Positions 23,869 to 40,726 of a stretch of DNA of 43,276 bases are shown in pieces (within the stretch, counting starts at the first letter, position 1; every line of letters starts with the position of its first letter). The notes under the pieces are model-generated. The model did not search any database. It saw nothing but the letters and a program-made list of their open reading frames with translations, and had not been told where the DNA came from. The stretch comes from Bacillota bacterium (lineage in GTDB: Bacteria; Bacillota; Sulfobacillia; JAUYEG01). The stretch lies in NCBI GenBank assembly GCA_030691505.1, contig JAUYEG010000010.1, positions 1-43,276 on the forward strand, given 5' to 3'. The position numbers and the translations under genes were made by a program.

Positions 23869-25056
23869 CTAGCCGCCGCTGCCCAGGTAGTCGAGTGCCG
23901 CGCGGACCATTACGGCGGCCCCAACCGGCATGCACTCCTCATCAAAGTCAAACCCCGGATGATGTCCCGGCAGGACCATGCCACGCGATTCGTTGCGGGC
24001 CCCGAGGCGGAAGAAACATCCCGGCGCCAGCTGGGCGAAATACGAGAAGTCTTCGCCGCCCATGCTCGGCTTGGGTATGAGCAGGACCTTGTCTTGCCCG
24101 AGGACCGACCGGCCGGCGGCCTCGACCAGCCGGCACATCCCCTCTTCGTTGACGACCGAGGGGTATCCGTAGCTGTATTGCATCTCAAGCTCGGCGCGCA
24201 TGGCGGCGCAGATGCCTCCGGCCAGCCGGCGCATCCGGCTCTCAACCGTGACCCTGAGCTCGGGATCAAGTGTCCGCACGGTACCAGTCATGGTGACTTC
24301 GGGGGCAATCACGTTGCCGCGGAAACCGCCTTGGAAGGTCCCTACCGTGATCACCAGCGGGTTGACCGGGTCCACCTCGCGGCTGACGATGGTCTGCAGC
24401 GCCGTGACGACCTGGCAGCCTACGGCGATGGCGTCAACGGACCGGTGCGGGTGCGCCCCGTGGCCGCCCACGCCGCGGATCGTGATCTGAAAGCCATCCG
24501 GGGCCGCGCTGGTCACTCCGTGTCCGACACCGATCCGGCCGGTGGGTATTTCGGTGTTGATGTGGAGGCCGATAACGGCATCGACGTGCGGGTTCTCCAT
24601 CGCGGCGTCCGCGATCATCGGCTGGGCGCCGCCGGGCCCCTCCTCGGCCGGCTGGAAAAGGAGCTTGACCTGGCCGTCAAACTCCCCGCGCAGTCCGTGC
24701 AGCAGCGTGCCCACGCCGAGCAGGATCGCGGTGTGCCCGTCGTGCCCGCAGGCATGCATCTTGCCCGCAACCCGCGATGAGTAAGGCCGATCCGGCTGCT
24801 CCTGTACCGGCAGCGCGTCCATATCCGCTCTGATGGCGATGGTCCGTCCCGGGCGCCGCCCCCGGATCAGGCCGACGACGCCGGTCCCGCCCACTCTTTC
24901 GCGAACCTCGATGTCGAGCGCCCTGAGGGCGGCGGCAACCGCGGCTGCGGTCTCAAACTCCTCCATCCCCAGCTCCGGATGCTGGTGAAACTGGCGGCGG
25001 TGGGCCACCATTTCCGGCAAGACCGCCGTTGCCCTGGCTAGCATCGTGTCGGTCAT
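23869..25056 (-). CDS. M20D amidohydrolase
   Basis: 395 residues of the M20D amidohydrolase family (N-acyl-amino-acid, hippurate or N-acetyl-diaminopimelate type). Motifs: RRQFHQHPELGMEEFET, ADMDALPVQE, GKMHACGHDGHTAILLG, LLFQPAEEGPGG and the dimerisation-domain GVGGHGAHPHRSVDAI, then MGGEDFSYFAQ. These hold the usual metal-binding His, Cys and Glu residues. Its ATG overlaps the stop of dnaE2 (ATGA at 25053-25056), so it is translationally coupled to the SOS mutagenesis operon. Whether that has meaning is unclear. The exact substrate cannot be read. Confidence 0.93.
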   Translation of the reverse strand: MTDTMLARATAVLPEMVAHRRQFHQHPELGMEEFETAAAVAAALRALDIEVRERVGGTGVVGLIRGRRPGRTIAIRADMDALPVQEQPDRPYSSRVAGKMHACGHDGHTAILLGVGTLLHGLRGEFDGQVKLLFQPAEEGPGGAQPMIADAAMENPHVDAVIGLHINTEIPTGRIGVGHGVTSAAPDGFQITIRGVGGHGAHPHRSVDAIAVGCQVVTALQTIVSREVDPVNPLVITVGTFQGGFRGNVIAPEVTMTGTVRTLDPELRVTVESRMRRLAGGICAAMRAELEMQYSYGYPSVVNEEGMCRLVEAAGRSVLGQDKVLLIPKPSMGGEDFSYFAQLAPGCFFRLGARNESRGMVLPGHHPGFDFDEECMPVGAAVMVRAALDYLGSGG

Positions 25057-28000
25057 GTCTCAACCTCCCGAGGTTTGGTCGTCCAGGCTTCGGCGGCCGC
25101 CGTCTCTGCTCCTTTGCGCCCGCCGGCCGCAGCCGCTCCCCCTACGACATCCGCCAGGTCGTGTATCTCCTCCGCCCGGACCGACACGCCGTTGCCGCGG
25201 CGGTCGAGCCGTCCATAGACCGCCAGCGGGGGGGCCGGGTCGCGGAAGATCAGCTTGCCGTAGCGGTCATACACGTTCTCGAAAATAGTCACGTCAATCA
25301 GGCCCGCCTCGTCCTCCAGGGACAGGAACACGACGGTGCGGCCGCTGCGAGTGGGCGGGCGGTGAGGCCTGAAAGGCACCCCGGCGACCATGACGCGGGC
25401 GCCCGGCGCGAGGCGGCGCCTGGTAAGACGCGCACTGTCCAGATAACTGAGAGCTGCCAGCCGTCTGCGGAAAAACGACATCGGGTGCGGGCCGGTGGTA
25501 AAGCCGAGGATTTCGTATTCGTACCGGAGCCTTTCCCATGGGGAGAAATCGGGCACCGCCTCGCCGCCGTGTACCTGCGGCGAGGCCGGCGGCTCCTCCC
25601 TTACTGAGCGATAGAGGGGCAGGTCCCGGGCACGGGCCGCCTGGAGCAGCGGGCCGGCATGCCACACCATTTTGCGGCGGTTGCCGCCGTCGGCCAGGCC
25701 GTCGAGGGCGCCGCACAGAATGAGGTTTTCGGCGATGCGCGTATCAAGCCCCGCGGCGGCGGTGCGCGCGAGAAAATTGGCAAGATCAAGGAATGGCCCC
25801 CCGATTCTGGCTTCAAGCAAGGCCGCGAGGACCGGCGGGGACATGGCCTTAACCTGCCTGAGACCGACACGGATCGCCGGGGCATCCTCTCCCTCAACGA
25901 CGAAATCGCCCTCGCTGCGGTTGACCGACGGGGGCAGGATGCGGACCCCCCTCCGCCGCGCCTCGACGCACAGAACGTGCGGCGGGTAGTAGCCCATCGG
26001 CTGCTGGCTTAAAATGGCCGCGAAGTAATGCGCGGGATGGTGGCGTACCAGATAGGCGGTCTTATAGGCGATATCGCCGAAAGCCGCCGCGTGGGCTTCG
26101 CAGAAACCGTAGCTGGCGTAGCCGACCACGTAGGAGAAGATCGTTTCCGCCACCTGCGCCTCGATGCCCCTGGCCGCGGCCTTGGATACGAAAAACCTGC
26201 CGATATCCTCCATCGCCTCGTGCGAGCGCCCGTGGGTCATCACCCTGCGCAGCCGGTCGGCCTCGCCCGGGGTGAAACCGGCGACGGTGATCGCGATCTC
26301 GATCACCTGTTCCTGAAACAGGACGACGCCATAGGTCTTCTTGAGAATGGGCTCGAGCAGCGGGTGCAGGTAGGTTACCTCCTCCTGCCCCTTGCGGCGG
26401 GCGATGAACGGCTCGACCATGTTGCCCTTGATCGGGCCCGGGCGGATCAGGGCCACGCTGGCGACGATATCCTCAAACGTTTCCGCCCCCAGCCGCGCCT
26501 GCAGGGCGCGCTGCGCCGGCGATTCAAGTTGAAAGGCCCCGACGGTTTCTCCCCGGTGAAGCATGGCGTAGGTGTCGGGGTCGCCGTGCGGGATGCGCTC
26601 ATAGCCCAGGCGTTCGGACGCAATCCGGCCGCGGTTGATCCCCAGGAGGGCATCGTCGACGGCCCCCAGGGTGCGCAGGGATAGGAGGTCCAGTTTGACG
26701 AGCCCAAGTTCCTCGACGCCCACCTTGTCAAACTGGGTGACGACAACGCCTTTGGCCGCCATCTGCAGCGGGGTGATCTCGGTAAGCGGCCGGCTGCTGA
26801 TGACCACTCCGCCGAGGTGCGTGCTGAGGTGCCGCGGAAAACCCGCAACCGCCGCGGCGGCCGCCGCCAGCCGGCGGTACTTCACGGCCGGAATGCCGCT
26901 GTCGCGCAGTTCGGGCAGTTCTTCGAAGGCCGAGTCAACCCGGCGGGCATTCATCCCCCAGGGCAGGGTCTTGGCTAACCGGTCCAGCTCCGCCGGCGAA
27001 AACCCCATCGCCTTGCCCAAATCGCGCACCGCCGAACGGGCGTGAAAGGTGTTGTAAGTGGCAACGGTGGCAACATGGTCCTTCCCATACCGCTCATAGA
27101 CGTAGCGGGTAACGTCGTCCCGCTTGCGGGCGTCGAAATCGACGTCTATATCCGGAAGCTCGGCCCGCTCCAGGCTCATGAAGCGCTCAAAGAGCAGCCC
27201 CCGCCGGATCGAGTCCACATCGGTGATAAAAAGGCAGTAGGCGACCGCCGAATCCGCCGCCGAGCCGCGCCCTGCGCAGCGGATCCCCCGCCGCCGGGCG
27301 AAAGCCACGACATCCCACACGAGCAGGAAGTACTCCTCGTAGCCGAGCCGGCAGATGACGTCCAGCTCATGCTCCAGGCGGCGGCGGATCGTCGGGCTGA
27401 TCTCACTGTACCTGGTCCGGGCCCCCTCGTAGGTCAACCGGCGGAGCATCGCGGCGGCACTCTCCCCATCAGGGGAGCCGAACCGGGGCTGCCGCACCTG
27501 CCCCAGCCGCAGGACCGGTTCGCAACGGGCCGCGATATCGAGACTGGCCCGCAGAGCTCGATCGATGACCACGGGGGGCAGATCCCAGAGTGAGGCGGCC
27601 ATATCGCCTCCGGACTTTAGATAGTTTTGGGCATTGAGCCGCCGCTCGGGGTGGACCTGGTCGAGCCGCGTCAAGGTACGCACACAAGTTAGCAGATCGT
27701 GCGTCGGAAAGTCCTTGGCCTCAAGGTAGTGGACGTTGTTGGTCGCCACGTACCCGACGCCGAGCTCCTCCGCAAGCTCAACGAGACGGGCGTTGAGGCC
27801 GCGCGTCCCCGGCAACATGCATCCCTCGAGCTCGACGAACAGGCCGGCGGGTCCGAAGATATCCCGCAGTCTGCACCCAAAGCGCAGAGCGGCCGGATAA
27901 TCGCCCGCGAGGATAGAGCGGGCGATCAGCCCCCGCCGACAGCCGGTAAGGGCGATGAGGTTACCGCCCACGTCCTCACCGTTTCCCCAGTATTTTCCCA

Positions 28001-28355
28001 GGTCAAGGGCGGGCTGCAGCCGCGGGTTGCCGAGGTGGGCGGCCGTGAGCGCCCCGCAGAGCATGGCATATCCGGCCGGGCCCGTCGCCAACAGAGTAAG
28101 GTGTCCGGCGTCCCTGACCGAGACCTCAGCCCCCTGGATAGCCTTGATGCCCAGCGCCGCCGCCCCGCGCGCGAACTCGGTTGCCGCGCAGACGTTGTCG
28201 TGGTCGGTGAGGGCAATTGCCGGCATGCCGAGAGATGCCGCCCGGACCAGCATGCTCTCCAACTCACAAGCCCCGTCCAGAAAGGAGAACGGCGAGTGAA
28301 CGTGCAGGTGTACGAAAGCCCGATCCTCGTGCCAGGGATGGCCCCTCTCAGGCAT
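25053..28355 (-). CDS. dnaE2: Error-prone DNA polymerase III alpha subunit
   Basis: 1,100 residues of a C-family polymerase. The N-terminal PHP domain has HLHVHSPFSFLDG (residues 16-28) and ALTDHDNV. The polymerase catalytic Asp pair lies in LPDIDVDFDARKRDDV near residue 400, and KLDLLSLRTLGAVD gives the third site. Finger and HhH regions follow (FYVVGYASYGFCEAHAAAF form), then an OB-like domain (VMVAGVPFRPHRPP). It lies downstream of imuB and a DUF6504 gene under LexA control, which marks it as DnaE2 rather than the replicative DnaE1. I chose ATG at 28355 over GTG at 28364, because AGGGGG lies eight bases upstream and would overlap the earlier codon. That ribosome binding site lies inside a hairpin (28360-28380). 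Its stop overlaps the M20 gene. Confidence 0.94.
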   Translation of the reverse strand: MPERGHPWHEDRAFVHLHVHSPFSFLDGACELESMLVRAASLGMPAIALTDHDNVCAATEFARGAAALGIKAIQGAEVSVRDAGHLTLLATGPAGYAMLCGALTAAHLGNPRLQPALDLGKYWGNGEDVGGNLIALTGCRRGLIARSILAGDYPAALRFGCRLRDIFGPAGLFVELEGCMLPGTRGLNARLVELAEELGVGYVATNNVHYLEAKDFPTHDLLTCVRTLTRLDQVHPERRLNAQNYLKSGGDMAASLWDLPPVVIDRALRASLDIAARCEPVLRLGQVRQPRFGSPDGESAAAMLRRLTYEGARTRYSEISPTIRRRLEHELDVICRLGYEEYFLLVWDVVAFARRRGIRCAGRGSAADSAVAYCLFITDVDSIRRGLLFERFMSLERAELPDIDVDFDARKRDDVTRYVYERYGKDHVATVATYNTFHARSAVRDLGKAMGFSPAELDRLAKTLPWGMNARRVDSAFEELPELRDSGIPAVKYRRLAAAAAAVAGFPRHLSTHLGGVVISSRPLTEITPLQMAAKGVVVTQFDKVGVEELGLVKLDLLSLRTLGAVDDALLGINRGRIASERLGYERIPHGDPDTYAMLHRGETVGAFQLESPAQRALQARLGAETFEDIVASVALIRPGPIKGNMVEPFIARRKGQEEVTYLHPLLEPILKKTYGVVLFQEQVIEIAITVAGFTPGEADRLRRVMTHGRSHEAMEDIGRFFVSKAAARGIEAQVAETIFSYVVGYASYGFCEAHAAAFGDIAYKTAYLVRHHPAHYFAAILSQQPMGYYPPHVLCVEARRRGVRILPPSVNRSEGDFVVEGEDAPAIRVGLRQVKAMSPPVLAALLEARIGGPFLDLANFLARTAAAGLDTRIAENLILCGALDGLADGGNRRKMVWHAGPLLQAARARDLPLYRSVREEPPASPQVHGGEAVPDFSPWERLRYEYEILGFTTGPHPMSFFRRRLAALSYLDSARLTRRRLAPGARVMVAGVPFRPHRPPTRSGRTVVFLSLEDEAGLIDVTIFENVYDRYGKLIFRDPAPPLAVYGRLDRRGNGVSVRAEEIHDLADVVGGAAAAGGRKGAETAAAEAWTTKPREVET

Positions 28356-28359
28356 CGTG

Positions 28360-28380
28360 AGCACCCCCTGAAGGGGGGCT
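28360..28380 (-). promoter_or_regulatory. Hairpin covering the dnaE2 ribosome binding site
   Basis: On the minus strand AGCCCCCC and GGGGGTGCT pair around a short TTCA-centred loop (one mismatch). The right arm contains the GGGGG ribosome binding site of dnaE2 and the left arm overlaps the DUF6504 stop codon. Ribosomes finishing DUF6504 would open it, so it could couple dnaE2 translation to the upstream gene. This is inference from sequence. Confidence 0.5.
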
Positions 28381-28630
28381 AATCGTAGACACGATACAGC
28401 CGCCAGCCACCGCGGGAGTCCCGAACCAGCTCAAATACCCTGCCCTCTCCGCCCATGACGCGAAAGAACAAGACCTCCCCTTCCCCATCCCACCAGGCAC
28501 CGGTGTCTGTCCAGACATCAAGCACTGCTTGGACGGCGTACTCACTATGACGCCAACGGAAACCCACCGGTGCGCAGAACGGGCCCACAGCGCCATGGAC
28601 CTCTATGGGCTGATCGATTAGCCGCGTCAA
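28379..28630 (-). CDS. DUF6504-type small protein of the imuB-dnaE2 operon
   Basis: 83 residues with the pattern GFRWRHSEYAVQAVLDVWTD, GAWWDGEGEVLFFRVM and a C-terminal VFELVRDSRGGWRLYRVYD. This matches the small family (DUF6504, name from memory) encoded beside imuB/dnaE2 in Actinobacteria and others. It starts at TTG in a TTGA overlap with the imuB stop. The function is unknown; a mutasome accessory role is inferred from constant gene context. Its stop codon lies in the hairpin that covers the dnaE2 ribosome binding site. Confidence 0.82.
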   Translation of the reverse strand: MTRLIDQPIEVHGAVGPFCAPVGFRWRHSEYAVQAVLDVWTDTGAWWDGEGEVLFFRVMGGEGRVFELVRDSRGGWRLYRVYD

Positions 28631-29979
28631 TCGGCGGGAGCGCCTCGCTCATGCCTCCGTACCGGATCTATCAGGGCCAACATCCGCTCGCGGCGGCTGG
28701 CGGGTGCAGTGCCGATCCTGACCACCCCGCCGGGGAATCTGCGCTCAAGGAAAGACACGGTCCGCAGCAGGTTGGACTGCTGATCTCGGCTTACCGCCTC
28801 AGGGAGGAAACTGAGCTGGCGGCCGGGGTCACGATCAAGTCCCGCGCCGATAACCTCAACTCCCAGCACCGGGCGGTGGACCTTTACCCCCTCCAACATA
28901 GCGGTTACCGCGGCGCCTAAGGTGCGGGGATCGCCCTGCGGGCGGCTGAAGATTCGCTCACGGGTCAAATCGAGGCCGTCATCCAGGCGCAGAATGAGCG
29001 TTAGTGACCTGCATCCCTGGAACTCGGCGCGGAGCGATTGCCCCAGATCCTCGCCCAGCGCCTGCAACGAGCTCTTGAGGGCCAGCTTGCCGCTTATCGG
29101 ACCATCGAAGTCGACCCGCCGGACGATCTCGTCCCGGCTGTAGGACGGGCAAACGCAGTCCTGGTCCTGACCCTGCGCCAGGTCAGCGAGCCGGTGGCCC
29201 TCGGCCCCAAACAGCCGGGACAGCTCAAGCCGGTTGACCCGTCCCACATCACCACAGGTCTTGAGGCCCAAGCGGTATAGGCGCTCACGGGTCTCTTCAG
29301 TGGCCGGCCACATGTATCCCACGGGCAGGGTTGCAAGAAAGGCAAGCTCGCCCGGCCGGCCGCCACATTGCAGGTCTGCAATCGTCAGAACCGGCCCCTG
29401 GCCCTGGCCGTCATCGCAGTTGCAGCAGTTATCGCAGTGATGGGTTGTGCGCCCATGGTCAACATTTATGCGGACGGCTTGAGGTGCGGTCGGAAACATA
29501 AACATCGGCCGCTCGTGGTCAGAAACCGCCCCCAACAGGGCTAAAACCGCGGCCCGGGCCACAAACTTGCTTGCGGCGAGGCCGGCCACCAGCTCAAATC
29601 CGCCAAACCCATCCGCCGCCAGACCCTTAATCGCCTGGGCGGGATCGCCGCCCCCGGCAAAGTCGACGAACAGGGCATTGGGCCCGTCAAGCTCAAAGCG
29701 GTTTGTCTCCCGCTTGAGCAGAGAAACCAGCGGCCTGATGCGAGCCTCGTAATCGGGCGCGTCAAACTCCACCGTCCCCAGGGCGGGAGATGCCTGTTTG
29801 GCCTGCCGGAGATGGCTACCCAGCAAGACTCCGGCCGCAGCCGCTGCAACATTGAGGTCGAACACCCGGCCCCGGCGAATCACAGCCTGGGGCGCTGGTC
29901 CGGACGCACCGGATGACAGGGTTAATCCAGGCCGGCCAAAGGGCAATCCTCTAAGGTAAAGATATCCGATAGGTGGCAT
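28627..29979 (-). CDS. imuB: ImuB-like Y-family polymerase homologue, catalytically inactive
   Basis: 450 residues of the Y-family fold but without catalytic acids. The first motif, normally containing Asp-x-Asp, reads IGYLYLRGLPF, and the later acidic pair is replaced. Recognisable parts are FVDFAGGGDPAQAI, FELVAGLAASKFVARAAV, an HhH segment (LYRLGLKTCGDVGRVNRLELSRLFG) and the little-finger-like region. QLSFLP near residue 388 fits a beta-clamp-binding motif. An unusual insert HCDNCCNCDD (residues 181-190) gives four clustered cysteines that could hold zinc. It is first in the SOS operon, overlapping DUF6504 by TTGA. ImuB normally acts as a scaffold for DnaE2. No imuA (RecA-like) gene is present in this operon. 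Confidence 0.88.
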   Translation of the reverse strand: MPPIGYLYLRGLPFGRPGLTLSSGASGPAPQAVIRRGRVFDLNVAAAAAGVLLGSHLRQAKQASPALGTVEFDAPDYEARIRPLVSLLKRETNRFELDGPNALFVDFAGGGDPAQAIKGLAADGFGGFELVAGLAASKFVARAAVLALLGAVSDHERPMFMFPTAPQAVRINVDHGRTTHHCDNCCNCDDGQGQGPVLTIADLQCGGRPGELAFLATLPVGYMWPATEETRERLYRLGLKTCGDVGRVNRLELSRLFGAEGHRLADLAQGQDQDCVCPSYSRDEIVRRVDFDGPISGKLALKSSLQALGEDLGQSLRAEFQGCRSLTLILRLDDGLDLTRERIFSRPQGDPRTLGAAVTAMLEGVKVHRPVLGVEVIGAGLDRDPGRQLSFLPEAVSRDQQSNLLRTVSFLERRFPGGVVRIGTAPASRRERMLALIDPVRRHERGAPAD

Positions 29980-33459: not shown

Positions 33460-33478
33460 AAACCTTGACGGGGTGGTG

Positions 33479-33811
33479 ATGGGTTCTAGCTGGAGTTTTT
33501 CCTTGGATAACTGGTCTCCCCGTGAAATGGCAGCTTTTCCTTTGTGGGGCAGGAACAGCGCCCATACCCGACGAAACCCCAAAGAGCCGGGAAACCGCAT
33601 CGCTCCATTATTCGTGGCTCTCACTGCACACCTCGCCATTCTAGCCGGTGCCGTGTATGGATATGTATTACTGGTCCAGGCGGTTTCCCCTCGCAACACA
33701 ACTCCTGTTGGGAGGTGGTGGACCGGCAGCCGGACTGACCGTGGCTCGTTTTGTTCTCCGCAGTTCTCCAACGGTAAAGGGGAGGTGACATTGTGGTGGT
33801 GTTTCAACTAG
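33479..33811 (+). CDS. Small single-span membrane protein, possible first gene of the DUF6754 operon
   Basis: 110 residues from ATG at 33479 (GGGGTGGTG just before it). The hydrophobic segment IAPLFVALTAHLAILAGAVYGYVLL, about residues 47-71, would span the membrane once. Before it lies a basic stretch (RNSAHTRRNPKEPGNR). It overlaps the following GTG by 19 bases. Base composition is visibly lower in GC than its neighbours. I do not know a homologue. The alternative is an untranslated leader of the operon with a chance frame; the clean membrane segment argues mildly for a gene. Confidence 0.5.
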   Translation: MGSSWSFSLDNWSPREMAAFPLWGRNSAHTRRNPKEPGNRIAPLFVALTAHLAILAGAVYGYVLLVQAVSPRNTTPVGRWWTGSRTDRGSFCSPQFSNGKGEVTLWWCFN

Positions 33812-34614
33812 CCGCCGATCCTGTCCTGGGCATCCTCTATGCGGGCAGGACCATGCAGCTTCTGACCATGATCATCTTCAGCGCCTTCGTCTACGTCATG
33901 ATCCGCCGTGCCAGAGCGGGCCTTCCTGTTCCCGCGATCCGCAAGATCCCGGGCCTGGAAGCCGTTGACGAGGCCATCGGCCGGGCGACGGAAATGGGCC
34001 GTCCAGTGCACTTCGCACCGGGAATCGGTGGTATCACGAACGCCGACACTTTCGCGGCGTGGGCCTTCCTCGGGCACATCGCGAAGCTGTGCGCCCGGTA
34101 CGATACCAGGCTGATCAACACCAACCGCGATTATCTGGTCCATACGATCAACGAGGAACTTATCCGGCAGTCATATCTGGAGGCCGGCAGACCTGACTCC
34201 TACAACCCCGACGATGTCCGCTATCTGACCGGGTCGCAGTTCGGCTACGCGGCCGGCGTCCTCGGAATGATGCAGCGCGAGCGCCCCGCAGCCAACATCC
34301 TTATCGGATACTTCTTCGCCGAGTCCATGCTCTTCGCCGAGGGCGGCGCCAACATCGGCGCAATCCAGATCGCCGGCACGACCAACACTGTCCAGCTGCC
34401 GTTCTTCCTCGCGGCCTGCGACTACACGCTTCTGGGCGAGGAGATCTACGCCGGTGGGGCCTACCTGTCCAAGGAGCCCAACCTGATCGGCACGGTGGTG
34501 GGCCAGGACTGGGGCCGTATCCTTACGTTCGTGGTCATGGTGATCGGCTGTGCGCTGGCAAACCTGGCGGCGGCGCAGGGCACGGCGTTCAAGAACTACC
34601 TGTTGACCAAATAG
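33793..34614 (+). CDS. DUF6754-type membrane protein
   Basis: 273 residues with an N-terminal membrane segment (residues about 17-38, RTMQLLTMIIFSAFVYVMIRR) and a C-terminal one (about 245-265, ILTFVVMVIGCALANLAAAQG). The central ~200 residues look globular with Rossmann-like patterns (GRPVHFAPGIGGITNADTFAA; ANILIGYFFAESMLFAEGGANIGAIQIAGTTN; GEEIYAGGAYLS). I recall such proteins as DUF6754, function unknown. The start is one of three successive GTG codons (33793, 33796, 33799) after GGGGAGGTGA. It is followed 21 bases later by the next membrane gene. It is the most conserved-looking member of the operon. Confidence 0.85.
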   Translation: MVVFQLAADPVLGILYAGRTMQLLTMIIFSAFVYVMIRRARAGLPVPAIRKIPGLEAVDEAIGRATEMGRPVHFAPGIGGITNADTFAAWAFLGHIAKLCARYDTRLINTNRDYLVHTINEELIRQSYLEAGRPDSYNPDDVRYLTGSQFGYAAGVLGMMQRERPAANILIGYFFAESMLFAEGGANIGAIQIAGTTNTVQLPFFLAACDYTLLGEEIYAGGAYLSKEPNLIGTVVGQDWGRILTFVVMVIGCALANLAAAQGTAFKNYLLTK

Positions 34615-34635
34615 GCCGCGTGAGGAGGTGCGAGA

Positions 34636-35259
34636 ATGCGTAAGCAACTGCCCCTGCTCTTGACGGGCACCGCGGCCCTCTGGGTCGTGCTCTGCCAGTA
34701 CATCCACCAGTTCAACGCGCTTAAGATGATGGGCACCACCGACCAGTGGCAACAGATTATCGTGGCAACGATGACTCTGGTCGGCGCCGTCAACCTGACC
34801 CGGATTCACGGGACCAACATCCAGCGGCGGCGTTCAGGGTATTACAACTCGATCGCCCTGCTCGTTGCGCTGTGGGCGTACATCGCCATGGGTATTTACC
34901 TGACCAACAAGCACGTTACCTATCGCTGGGTTTACGACGCTACCTGCGTTCCCTGGGAAGCTACGATGTTTTCCATGATCGCGTTCTTCATCGCTTCCGC
35001 GGCCGTCCGGACGTTCCGCATCAGGACCGCGGAGGCTGCTGTGATGGGTCTGGTTGCAGCGTTCGTTATGCTTGGCAACGTCCCGCTGGGCCCGGTGATC
35101 TCGGACAAGATCCCCCAGCTCAAGGACTGGCTAATGAATATCCCCAACGGGGCGGGGTTCCGTGCGATCCGTATCGGCATTTACATTGGTACTTTCGCCG
35201 CGGCCATGCGCATTGCGCTTGGTCTTGAACGTGCCCATCTGGGCAGCGGCGCCCAGTAG
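34636..35259 (+). CDS. Unknown polytopic membrane protein, DUF6754 operon
   Basis: 207 residues with about five or six membrane segments: residues about 6-24, 40-58, 72-92, 108-126, 132-152 and 175-195. Loops contain the polar stretch RIHGTNIQRRRSGYYNS. No known transporter or enzyme motif is visible. ATG at 34636 has a strong GAGGAGGTG site. It lies 21 bases after the DUF6754 gene and 24 bases before the next gene, clearly one transcription unit. Confidence 0.82.
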   Translation: MRKQLPLLLTGTAALWVVLCQYIHQFNALKMMGTTDQWQQIIVATMTLVGAVNLTRIHGTNIQRRRSGYYNSIALLVALWAYIAMGIYLTNKHVTYRWVYDATCVPWEATMFSMIAFFIASAAVRTFRIRTAEAAVMGLVAAFVMLGNVPLGPVISDKIPQLKDWLMNIPNGAGFRAIRIGIYIGTFAAAMRIALGLERAHLGSGAQ

Positions 35260-35283
35260 CCGGCGGGAGGAGGTGCGCAAATC

Positions 35284-36120
35284 ATGTGGGAGAAACTGCA
35301 AGATCTTGACCGCAGGTGGATCTATCTGGTCTTCGTGATCGCCCTGCTGTTCCCCCTGTTCAAACCCCTCGGCCTGCCGATCAAGGTCGGGGCCGACGTG
35401 CAAAATTTCTACACTAAGTTTGACAAACTGCCCGCCGGCGCCGTGGTCTGGCTGTCGCCGGACTACAGCCCCGGCGCCTCGGCGGAGCTAAACCCGCAGT
35501 TCGAGGCGGTCCTGCGTCATTGCTTCAAGAATAACTACAAGCTTCTCATGTACAGCATGTGGGAGCAGGGTTCCTTCCTTGGCCGCGACATCATGGAGAG
35601 GGTCGCCAAAGAGTTGAACAAGGTCCACGGGGTGGATTGGATCTACCTCGGATGGCGGGCCGGTGGGAACACCGTCATCCGCCGGGCCAGCGAGGACCTG
35701 TGGGGCGCGATGGAGAACCTCGATGGCTACGACAAACCGCTCGCCGATTCGCCGCTTATGGCCAACATCAGACGGCTGTGGACGCCGGACGTTGACGCCA
35801 TCGTATGCTTCAGCTCCGGCAGCCCGGGCGACGGTGACTACATGACCTACGTCACCGACCCGGCCGCCAAAGAGGCCAAGCCGGTACTGCTGTTCACGGG
35901 CCAGGTGGCCGTGCAGGCTCCATCACGCATTCCGGTCATCCGTTCCGGCCAGATACAGGGCATGATCCCGGGCATGGGCGGCGCGGCGGAGTACGAAACG
36001 CTCAACAAGATCCCCGGCAAGGCGGCGGGGCTGATGGATGCCCAGTCGCTGGCGCACGTGGTTATCCTTGCGTTCATCGTCTTGGGCAATATCGCCTATC
36101 TTGCGTCGCGCAAGAAATAG
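35284..36120 (+). CDS. Unknown protein with N- and C-terminal membrane anchors, DUF6754 operon
   Basis: 278 residues. Hydrophobic segments lie at residues about 11-30 (RRWIYLVFVIALLFPLFKPL) and about 252-272 (LAHVVILAFIVLGNIAYLA). Between them is a ~200-residue globular domain with alpha/beta rhythm (KLPAGAVVWLSPDYSPGASAEL; NYKLLMYSMWEQGSFLGRDI; GVDWIYLGWRAGGNTVI; VDAIVCFSSGSPGDGDYMTY; AKPVLLFTGQVAVQ). The topology matches that of the DUF6754 protein, two anchors around one Rossmann-like domain. That suggests two paralogous or partner subunits. The ribosome binding site is GGGAGGAGGTG. The function is unknown. Confidence 0.85.
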   Translation: MWEKLQDLDRRWIYLVFVIALLFPLFKPLGLPIKVGADVQNFYTKFDKLPAGAVVWLSPDYSPGASAELNPQFEAVLRHCFKNNYKLLMYSMWEQGSFLGRDIMERVAKELNKVHGVDWIYLGWRAGGNTVIRRASEDLWGAMENLDGYDKPLADSPLMANIRRLWTPDVDAIVCFSSGSPGDGDYMTYVTDPAAKEAKPVLLFTGQVAVQAPSRIPVIRSGQIQGMIPGMGGAAEYETLNKIPGKAAGLMDAQSLAHVVILAFIVLGNIAYLASRKK

Positions 36121-36142
36121 CCCAGGCAAGGGGGTGAAGTGA

Positions 36143-36760
36143 ATGTCAACGACACAGATCTGGATCGCAGCGCTGGGCACACTGGCCCTGTTCTCCTTCC
36201 TGTGGAAAGAGAACCCGGCCTACCGCTTCGTCGAACACATCTTCATCGGGCTGACGGCTGCGCACGTCGTCGTCATGAACTACGACAGCTACATCAAGCC
36301 GGTCTGGCGCGACAGCGTCATGCGCGACGGCAAGTATGTGCTGATCATCCCGTTCCTCATCGGCCTGCTGATCTACACGCGGTATAGCAAGAGCATCAAC
36401 TGGCTCGCGCGCATCCCGATGTCCCTGCTGGTGGGCTACGGCGTCGGGTACACCCTGGCGTTCAATCCCCTGCCCTTCCTGCGGCAGGTGACCGACAACT
36501 TCGTCAAGTTCCAGGGCAAGACCGCGACCATCACAGCAAACAACGTGCTCTTCTTCGTGATGTCCATGGCCGGGCTGGCGTACTTCTTCTTCACCGTGTC
36601 CCGGGAGAAGTACGGCCTGCAGTACATTTCGACCCTGGGCCGCTACACGATCGTCATCGCCCTCGGCGCCTCGTATGGCAGCACCGTGCAGGGCCGTATC
36701 TCGCTGCTGCTCGGCCGCATGCAGTTCCTGCTCAAGGACTGGCTGGGCGTGCTGCAGTGA
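36143..36760 (+). CDS. Unknown polytopic membrane protein, last gene of DUF6754 operon
   Basis: 205 residues with about six membrane segments (near residues 5-22, 30-48, 70-88, 93-112, 130-150 and 163-185). A polar loop MNYDSYIKPVWRDSVMRDGKY follows the second. No recognised motif is visible. ATG at 36143 has GGGGGTGAAG upstream, 22 bases after the previous stop. A strong hairpin follows the gene by about 50 bases, so this is the operon end. It could pair with the other polytopic protein (34636-35259), which has similar size and span count. Confidence 0.82.
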   Translation: MSTTQIWIAALGTLALFSFLWKENPAYRFVEHIFIGLTAAHVVVMNYDSYIKPVWRDSVMRDGKYVLIIPFLIGLLIYTRYSKSINWLARIPMSLLVGYGVGYTLAFNPLPFLRQVTDNFVKFQGKTATITANNVLFFVMSMAGLAYFFFTVSREKYGLQYISTLGRYTIVIALGASYGSTVQGRISLLLGRMQFLLKDWLGVLQ

Positions 36761-36813
36761 CATAGGGCATCAGTGACGCCGGCTTTGCCCGGCCGCACTG
36801 GGGTGAGTTGGGG

Positions 36814-36862
36814 CTGGGCCGAAGGCCGCACATGGCAGCCTTCGGCCCAGTCTTTGTCTTGC
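36814..36862 (+). terminator. Intrinsic terminator of the DUF6754 operon
   Basis: CTGGGCCGAAGGC (36814-36826) pairs perfectly with GCCTTCGGCCCAG (36838-36850) around an 11-base loop, followed by TCTTTGTCTTGC. The 13-bp stem with a T-rich tail lies about 50 bases after the last gene. Confidence 0.8.
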
Positions 36863-39556: not shown

Positions 39557-40726
39557 CTACTCCAGGGTCTTGATGACCGAGGCTTTGGCCTCGGCGGCAT
39601 AGTCCAGGATGCGCAGTAGCGTGCGCTTCCACAGGTCCTCGACGCCTTTGAAATTCATGTTGGGGACGTAGTACCCCTCAAGCACGTCGTGGGCGTGCTT
39701 GGCTCCGGCCAGGAAGCCGAAGGCCCGCTGGAGCAGTTCGTCGTACAGGATATGGTCGTCGCGCAGCAGTTCGGCGTGCTTGGCGGCCGTCGCCGGGTTG
39801 AGGCACTCGTTCATGTCGACGACCCGGTCGTTTGGGCCCGGCCGGGTCGCGTGGGGCTCGATCGATTTGGTCAGGACAAGGCTCATGCCCGGCACGACGA
39901 CGTGCTCGATCTTGCTCGGGTTGAGGGCGCAGTGGTACATTGCGACGAAGTAACCCCGCTCCAGCGCCGCGGTCGCCACCTTGTGCAGCAGGGTCGACTT
40001 GCCGGTGCCGGGCTCACCCTCGATGATGTACCGGTGCTTCATCGGGCTGATGATCGTGGGCAGGTAGTGGACCACGCCTTTGGGCGTATTGGCAGAGGCG
40101 AAAAGATGCCGTTGCCTCCCCACCAGCGGCGACACGTGGATACCCGTGAAGAGCTCACGAAGCAGGTGATCGGCGATTTTGTTGACGAGGCCGAAGTTCA
40201 TGCCCTCCATGTTGGCGGCCTCGATGTCGTCGTACACCGCCCTGGCAGCCCGGAGAAAGCGGTAGGCGCGTTCGAACAGCCGGCCGACCTCGCGGTTGAC
40301 CTCCTGGATCTTTTGCCGCTTGGCCCGCATGGCGGGTTCGTCCCAGAAGTCGCCGAGATGCAGGATTTCATCAACAGCGCCGGGGTTACGCGGGTCGACA
40401 ACGTGCGGCGCCGTCCCGTCTATGAGGGCGACGCCGATCTGCGGGAACACCACCGCGTCCAGCGAACCGGGATCAGACGAACAGAAGTGCAGCTCAACGT
40501 CAAAGCCCCGTTCAAGCAGAGCGTCCGCCGTCCGCCGCATGAACGTCGACTTGCCTACACCGGGGCCGCCCTTGATGATTATGATGCGCCGGGCGTCCGG
40601 GCCGACGATGTACTCGTAGAAAGAGTAAAACCCCTGAGCGGTGTTGTTGCCCGGGAAGACCTTCGTTACATGGCCCGGCCCTCCCCGGGATTCGTTGCCG
40701 AAACCGCCCTCTGCCGCATCTGCCAC
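39557..40726 (-). CDS. Two-P-loop ATPase of the PRK06851 type
   Basis: 389 residues with two P-loop NTPase halves. The first Walker A is GGPGVGKST (residues 53-61), with VELHFCSSDPGSLDAVVFP after it. The second is GEPGTGKST near residue 237, followed by the parallel AMYHCALNPSKIEHVVVPG. The internal duplication is clear from the matching HFCSSDP/YHCALNP and FP/VP segments. This is the family I know as PRK06851, common in spore-forming Bacillota, function unknown. GTG at 40726 follows GGAGGAG. It is convergent with the lipoprotein unit and divergent from pheA. Confidence 0.9.
   Translation of the reverse strand: MADAAEGGFGNESRGGPGHVTKVFPGNNTAQGFYSFYEYIVGPDARRIIIIKGGPGVGKSTFMRRTADALLERGFDVELHFCSSDPGSLDAVVFPQIGVALIDGTAPHVVDPRNPGAVDEILHLGDFWDEPAMRAKRQKIQEVNREVGRLFERAYRFLRAARAVYDDIEAANMEGMNFGLVNKIADHLLRELFTGIHVSPLVGRQRHLFASANTPKGVVHYLPTIISPMKHRYIIEGEPGTGKSTLLHKVATAALERGYFVAMYHCALNPSKIEHVVVPGMSLVLTKSIEPHATRPGPNDRVVDMNECLNPATAAKHAELLRDDHILYDELLQRAFGFLAGAKHAHDVLEGYYVPNMNFKGVEDLWKRTLLRILDYAAEAKASVIKTLE

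What the first reader, a model, noticed from the sequence alone, without database searches (positions are those of the whole stretch)
33479..36760. Uncharacterised operon of small membrane proteins around DUF6754
Four, possibly five, closely spaced plus-strand genes with strong ribosome binding sites end in a clear terminator, and none has a known function. Two proteins (33793-34614 and 35284-36120) share one topology, an alpha/beta globular domain between two membrane anchors. Two others (34636-35259 and 36143-36760) are polytopic with about six spans and near-equal size. This 2+2 pattern suggests one membrane complex built from alternating anchored and polytopic subunits. The operon follows a DUF362/ferredoxin gene by only 19 bases, so a redox link is possible. 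Topology is read from hydrophobicity; the complex is inference.
Basis: partly seen in the sequence, partly recalled or inferred. Interest (0 to 1): 0.75.

Follow-up and report, generated by a model that had tools for sequence, protein, structure and literature searches.

The report
Unrecognised four-gene bacterial amino-acid importer
Four neighbouring genes of unknown function form a fixed membrane-protein set that some bacteria carry in up to 27 diverged copies; because three copies in a related genome sit behind RNA sensors for tryptophan or lysine, the set is most likely a previously unrecognised kind of amino-acid uptake machine.

Summary
The four genes (33793-36760) are real and form an obligate cassette. 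P2 is DUF6754. P3, P4 and P5 have no relatives in Pfam, NCBIfam or the PDB. The same order P2-P3-P4-P5 holds in 110 of 122 loci examined; 11 of the rest are cut by contig ends and one is decayed. Subunits P2 and P4 occur in the same 31 of 398 genomes of the phylum. The window's genome has 9 diverged copies and a relative (G013) has 27.

In G013 three cassettes sit directly behind amino-acid-sensing leaders: two Trp T-boxes (specifier UGG, T-box UGGC) and one lysine riboswitch with terminator. Operonic neighbours are enriched in amidohydrolases; peptidases and histidine-catabolic genes also occur. Best reading: a new four-subunit amino-acid (or small-peptide) importer family, each copy with its own substrate; that of the window copy is unknown.

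Not supported: the fifth gene (coding score about zero, no homologue) and the redox link. The two "same topology" proteins have their domains on opposite membrane sides, by charge. Cassette genomes almost always also carry a GlmL-like ATPase and a barrel-sandwich protein, possible partners. Transport is inferred, not shown. Fold, energy source and substrate range remain open.

The parts
33793..34614 (+). P2, DUF6754 subunit (273 aa): N-terminal anchor (about 19-37), conserved alpha/beta domain predicted cytoplasmic, C-terminal anchor (about 240-258)
   Evidence: PF20539 E=1.2e-97; 51 homologues aligned, 9 invariant columns; topology; codon score
34636..35259 (+). P3, polytopic subunit (207 aa, six predicted spans, N-in), conserved Arg125, Arg176, Arg192, Arg199
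   Evidence: no recurrent Pfam transporter match; found downstream of P2 in every locus not cut by a contig end, truncated in one decayed copy
35284..36120 (+). P4, anchored subunit (278 aa): domain between two anchors, predicted extracytoplasmic; the most variable soluble domain of the set
   Evidence: no Pfam or NCBIfam match, no PDB relative
36143..36760 (+). P5, polytopic subunit (205 aa, six or seven predicted spans, N-out)
   Evidence: no recurrent Pfam match, no PDB relative
36810..36855 (+). GC-rich hairpin after P5, probable terminator with a weak T-tract
   Evidence: minimum free energy -50.5 kcal/mol for 76 nt, z=-4.45; not found by the strict scan
33460..33792 (+).
   Evidence: no homologue; codon score -0.04; no Rfam match; no similarity to other cassette leaders

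Best explanation
The four genes encode one membrane complex that imports amino acids or closely related small compounds (short peptides, N-acyl or D-amino acids). P3 and P5 would form the membrane pathway. P4 would present a recognition domain outside. P2 would hold a conserved working domain on the cytoplasmic side. Each paralogous cassette would serve its own substrate, with its catabolic enzymes often encoded next door. Shown: fixed four-gene unit, deep paralogy, amino-acid-sensing leaders on three cassettes, catabolic neighbours. Inferred: topology (from charge), that it transports, the direction (inward), and the roles of the subunits. Not known: energy source and the window copy's substrate.
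For: 1) Unit: order P2-P3-P4-P5 in 110 of 122 loci, exceptions being 11 contig ends and one decayed copy; P2 in 32 and P4 in 31 of 398 phylum genomes, all P4 genomes among the P2 genomes. 2) Paralogy: up to 27 copies per genome, mean P4 identity 33-35% within the multi-copy genomes G000, G005, G013, G030 and G047, with orthologous pairs kept between genera. 3) Leaders in G013: T-box 51 nt before P2 in L050 (106.5 bits) and about 70 nt before P2 in L178 (87.3 bits), both with specifier UGG and T-box UGGC, the same pair as the T-box of the Streptococcus suis Trp uptake operon trpXYZ (PMC9382623). Pro, Leu, Tyr and Met T-boxes from these genomes read correctly in the same way. Lysine riboswitch (84.8 bits) plus terminator 172 nt before P2 in L054, no gene between. 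Chance of 2 of 15 T-boxes landing so: about 5e-5. Both leader types have been used to assign transporter specificity (PMC2494555; PMC5584792), and both favour import or synthesis over export. 4) Operonic neighbours: amidohydrolases 10 of 72 against at most 1 of 72 background genes (p=0.009), M24 4 of 72, also M81, M19, GGT, HAL, urocanase, LamB/YcsF. 5) P4's outer domain is more variable (2.25 bits) than P2's inner domain (1.56 bits), as expected if P4 meets the substrate.
Against: No leader was found at the window's own cassette. All three leaders are in one MAG (listed contamination 6%), and the T-box list was cut off for some genomes. No homology to any transporter family was found, and no reliable structure could be made (pLDDT 36 and 48). 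No conserved acidic residue among the best-conserved positions of P3, only E31 in P5, and no consistent Walker motif point to an energy source. Genomes with many cassettes do not have fewer peptide-binding ABC proteins.
Confidence: 0.77

Rival explanations
1. A membrane-bound enzyme complex that hydrolyses or modifies peptides or amino-acid derivatives at the cell surface, with P2 or P4 catalytic.
For: P2 has many invariant charged or polar residues (E60, R64, E67, E183, Q201, D210); neighbours are hydrolases.
Against: P4, the outer domain, has few invariant polar residues (E238, N269); two polytopic subunits with six or more spans are costly for an anchored enzyme; the hydrolases are already encoded next door; Trp and Lys sensors do not normally control hydrolases.
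Confidence: 0.1
2. A receptor or sensory complex for amino acids, such as a germinant-receptor-like system (multi-copy, membrane-bound, amino-acid-responsive).
For: Multi-copy membrane cassettes with soluble domains are known for germinant receptors (from memory).
Against: No germinant-receptor Pfam match for any member; catabolic operon neighbours and amino-acid starvation leaders do not fit a germination receptor.
Confidence: 0.05
3. An exporter or osmolyte channel.
For: Two orthologous cassettes lie in blocks with a c-di-AMP riboswitch upstream of a cell-wall hydrolase.
Against: T-boxes switch genes on when the amino acid is scarce, and a lysine riboswitch followed by a terminator switches them off when lysine is plentiful, which fits import or synthesis. 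The c-di-AMP element precedes another gene.
Confidence: 0.04
4. A redox or electron-transfer membrane complex.
For: A DUF362/ferredoxin gene precedes the window's cassette.
Against: DUF362 is near 3 of 122 cassettes only; no cofactor-binding domain in P2-P5; the 19-nt spacing rests on a non-gene.
Confidence: 0.02

Closest known systems
DUF6754 (Pfam PF20539)
   Same: P2 is a full member (E=1.2e-97)
   Different: Pfam gives no function. The obligate P3-P4-P5 partners, the copy number and the amino-acid link are not part of its description as shown by the tool, and no paper in the held library mentions DUF6754
T-box-controlled Trp uptake operon trpXYZ (Streptococcus suis, ABC type)
   Same: Same kind of control: T-box with specifier UGG and T-box UGGC directly before a multi-gene membrane operon (PMC9382623)
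   Different: trpXYZ is an ABC transporter with an ATPase and a binding protein; the DUF6754 cassette has neither
TRAP and tripartite tricarboxylate (TTT) transporters
   Same: Multi-subunit, multi-copy, each copy with its own substrate and enzyme neighbours; two membrane subunits plus a soluble recognition part (analogy from memory)
   Different: No DctM, DctQ, TctA, TctB or binding-protein homology; the outer domain is anchored at both ends; an extra cytoplasmic-domain subunit is present
ECF transporters (shared energising module, many substrate units)
   Same: Many diverged copies beside a widely co-occurring ATPase (GlmL-like, ASKHA type) that is often encoded elsewhere
   Different: No ECF domain; the ATPase is not ABC type; a physical link is untested

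Membership tests
DUF6754 (PF20539) | Whole-protein score above the curated cut-off | tested here: met
   P2 326.5 bits against cut-off 27
ABC importer | Nucleotide-binding subunit with Walker A motif in the unit | tested here: not met
   No ABC_tran match; Walker A pattern absent or sporadic (0-5 of about 115 sequences per subunit)
ABC importer | Substrate-binding protein in the unit | tested here: not met
   P4 matches no SBP family; none is conserved next to the cassettes
TRAP / TTT transporter | DctM/DctQ or TctA/TctB membrane subunits | tested here: not met
   49 P3 and 49 P5 homologues scanned against Pfam without such matches
Known secondary amino-acid transporters (APC, NSS, LIVCS, DAACS and others) | Sequence match to the family profile | tested here: not met
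   No such family for P3 or P5; scattered weak hits only (best: TMD0_ABC 1e-5 and Nucleos_tra2_N 2e-4, each in a minority of members)
Known secondary amino-acid transporters (APC, NSS, LIVCS, DAACS and others) | Shared three-dimensional fold | not testable with these tools
Amino-acid uptake system (by function) | Control by an amino-acid-sensing leader | tested here: met
   For three cassettes of G013: two Trp T-boxes, one lysine riboswitch; none at the window copy
Amino-acid uptake system (by function) | Measured transport | not testable with these tools
   Needs an uptake assay
Germinant receptor (GerA/B/C) | GerA, GerB or GerC domain | tested here: not met
   No such Pfam match

The most novel reading that the evidence does not exclude
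A new transporter class in which many substrate-specific four-subunit units share a common energising partner: a roughly 600-residue GlmL-like ASKHA ATPase plus a barrel-sandwich protein (c4). P2/P3 and P4/P5 would be duplicated half-complexes inserted in opposite orientations. Support: 30 genomes share cassette and c4 out of 32 and 31 among 398 (p about 1e-41, not corrected for relatedness); single-copy loci have cassette, GlmL-like and c4 genes side by side; P2 and P4 align collinearly but weakly. Against: GlmL-c4 pairs also lie beside other amino-acid catabolic genes, and P3-P5 homology was not found.
Probability: 0.18. Interest if true: 0.93.

Novelty: categorically new. Interest (0 to 1): 0.8.

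Why it matters
Amino-acid uptake is one of the best-mapped areas of bacterial physiology, so an importer family that shares no sequence with the known ones, and that some lineages have multiplied to 27 copies, would be a real surprise. It would give a function to DUF6754 and to three families without any name, allow annotation of hundreds of genes in poorly cultured bacteria that appear to live on amino acids and peptides, and offer a direct test through the Trp- and Lys-controlled copies. It also raises a testable question about what a GlmL-like ATPase does outside coenzyme B12 mutases.

Tried and rejected
Fifth gene at 33479: rejected. Redox complex: rejected. P3-P4 fusion in L080: seen, then shown to be an ORF-picking artefact; a separate P3 is there. 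P2-P4 homology: hhalign p=0.0038 over 81 columns, collinear over the full length with a shared AQ[D/S]-x12-G before and in the last span, but an unrelated control family reached p=0.0052, so only suggestive. P3-P5 homology: the reversed control scored better. Structure prediction with the only three sequences allowed: pLDDT 36 and 48, so no fold search was run. Replacement of peptide ABC importers: no anti-correlation. Viral contigs and plasmids: no relatives. Leaders: no Rfam family and no shared motif at the window copy; no leader at gathering score in nine loci of the tandem-array genomes and others. PDB profile searches: only chance-level hits. Raw gene calling by longest ORF misplaced some neighbours, so neighbour counts were redone with a codon score.
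Full report
1. What is there. Four plus-strand genes lie at 33793-34614 (P2), 34636-35259 (P3), 35284-36120 (P4) and 36143-36760 (P5), 21-24 nt apart, each after a G-rich ribosome-binding site. Their codon scores (0.26-0.36 per codon) are those of real genes; the proposed fifth gene at 33479 scores -0.04, like its opposite strand, and has no homologue. A strong hairpin follows P5 (z=-4.45), with a T-tract too weak for the strict scan. P2 is DUF6754 (E=1.2e-97); P3, P4 and P5 match no family in Pfam or NCBIfam, and profiles of about 50 sequences each find nothing credible in the PDB. No paper in the held library mentions DUF6754.

2. It is an obligate and paralogous unit. DUF6754 occurs 9 times in the window's own genome and in 24 of 61 relatives (own genome included), with 27 matches in G013. 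I fetched 108 stretches holding 122 copies of P2. In 110 the order is P2-P3-P4-P5; 11 are cut by contig ends and one (L151) is decayed. In a phylum sample of 398 genomes P2 is in 32 and P4 in 31, the P4 genomes all among the P2 genomes. Distances of the four proteins correlate (r 0.72-0.77) and the copies within the multi-copy genomes of the class are old (mean P4 identity 33-35%), with orthologous pairs kept between genera, e.g. window with L045, or the G005/G047 pairs. G362 instead has a recent tandem array. This is the pattern of a family whose copies have separate jobs.

3. Topology. Averaged over 112-120 homologues, the positive-inside rule puts the P2 domain in the cytoplasm and the P4 domain outside; P3 has six spans with its N-terminus inside, P5 six or seven with its N-terminus outside. 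P2 and P4 align collinearly (hhalign p=0.0038; an AQ[D/S]-x12-G match at the last span), though an unrelated control reached 0.0052; P3 and P5 do not beat the reversed control. This is inference, not demonstrated homology. The outer P4 domain varies more (2.25 bits) than the inner P2 domain (1.56 bits).

4. Amino-acid sensors in front of cassettes. In G013 a T-box leader lies 51 nt before P2 in L050 (106.5 bits) and another about 70 nt before P2 in L178 (87.3 bits, below the gathering score but E=2e-19). Both read specifier UGG (Trp) and T-box UGGC, where C would pair with G73 of tRNA-Trp (textbook knowledge). T-boxes of ProRS-, LeuRS-, TyrA- and MetRS-like genes from the same set of genomes (genes named by eye), read in the same way, give Pro, Leu, Tyr and Met. 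The same UGG and UGGC pair is reported for the T-box of the Trp uptake operon trpXYZ of Streptococcus suis (PMC9382623). A third cassette (L054) lies behind a full lysine riboswitch (84.8 bits, E=2e-20), followed by an intrinsic terminator and, 172 nt downstream of the aptamer, by P2 with no gene between. T-boxes have been used to assign substrates to transporters, and appear on only one or a few members of each family, in few species (PMC2494555); lysine riboswitches sit before lysine biosynthesis and transporter genes (PMC5584792). The probability that 2 of 15 T-boxes in G013 fall there by chance is about 5e-5 (a rough estimate). The cassettes hold membrane proteins and no known biosynthetic enzyme, so import is the natural reading. 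Genome-wide T-box scans of G000 and other cassette genomes showed no further case, but part of the output was cut off.

5. Neighbours. Same-strand genes close to cassettes, compared with genes at least five positions away in the same loci, are enriched in amidohydrolases (10 of 72 against at most 1; p=0.009), with 4 M24 peptidases and single cases of M81, M19, gamma-glutamyltranspeptidase, aromatic amino-acid (histidine-type) lyase, urocanase and a LamB/YcsF protein (further examples). The gene 24 nt after the Trp-controlled L050 cassette is an amidohydrolase. The DUF362/ferredoxin gene is near only 3 of 122 cassettes, so the redox link is dropped.

6. A possible partner. In single-copy genomes the cassette lies in one cluster with one or two GlmL-like ATPases (PF13941, about 600 residues), a 370-480 residue protein with a weak RnfC-type barrel-sandwich match (c4) and a small protein (c3). 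c4 is strongly present in all 24 cassette genomes among the relatives and in 3 of the other 37 (weaker in 2 more); in the phylum sample 30 genomes share both, of 32 with cassettes and 31 with strong c4. These p-values ignore relatedness. GlmL-c4 pairs also lie beside histidine-degradation, threonine-aldolase-like and ornithine-cyclodeaminase-like genes and MacB-like ABC permeases (by eye), so they may serve amino-acid metabolism in general.

7. Verdict. Best explanation: a four-subunit amino-acid (or small-peptide) importer family, each copy with its own substrate. Shown: the unit, its paralogy, its sensors in three cases, its neighbours. Inferred: transport, direction, subunit roles, opposite orientation. 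Unknown: fold, energy source, the window copy's substrate. All three leaders come from one metagenome-assembled genome with a listed contamination of 6%; this weakens the count but not the physical adjacency, which is within single contigs.

Noticed in passing
L121:7780-13990, L236:4066-12102, L070:12032-17901: An uncharacterised set of a ~600-residue GlmL-like ATPase, a barrel-sandwich protein (c4) and a small protein (c3) is conserved with cassette genomes and also stands alone beside amino-acid catabolic genes. The large GlmL-like proteins score well below the NCBIfam cut-offs for GlmL and Or-4.
   Followed up: partly
L249:6856-15999: GlmL-like and c4 genes sit in what looks by eye like a histidine-degradation cluster (HAL-like, urocanase-like, imidazolonepropionase-like, formimidoyltransferase-like).
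   Followed up: no
L118, L119 (G362:C1:2070000-2104000): Tandem array of at least seven cassettes head to tail in one genome, with P2 copies up to 98% identical: recent amplification, unlike the old paralogues elsewhere.
   Followed up: partly
L162:6149-6284 and L156:11425-11619: c-di-AMP riboswitch before a cell-wall hydrolase gene (PF07486 in L156) in a block upstream of orthologous DUF6754 cassettes; whether it also controls the cassette is unclear.
   Followed up: no
L041:5608-5703: Glycine riboswitch about 2.5 kb from a cassette of the window's genome, on the other strand.
   Followed up: no
window 25053-29979 (minus strand): DnaE-type polymerase, small gene and Y-family (ImuB-like) polymerase genes in a row, by eye a mutagenesis (DnaE2/ImuB-like) cluster.
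   Followed up: no
window 39557-40726 (minus strand): 389-residue protein with two P-loop motifs, apparently a duplicated ATPase domain.
   Followed up: no
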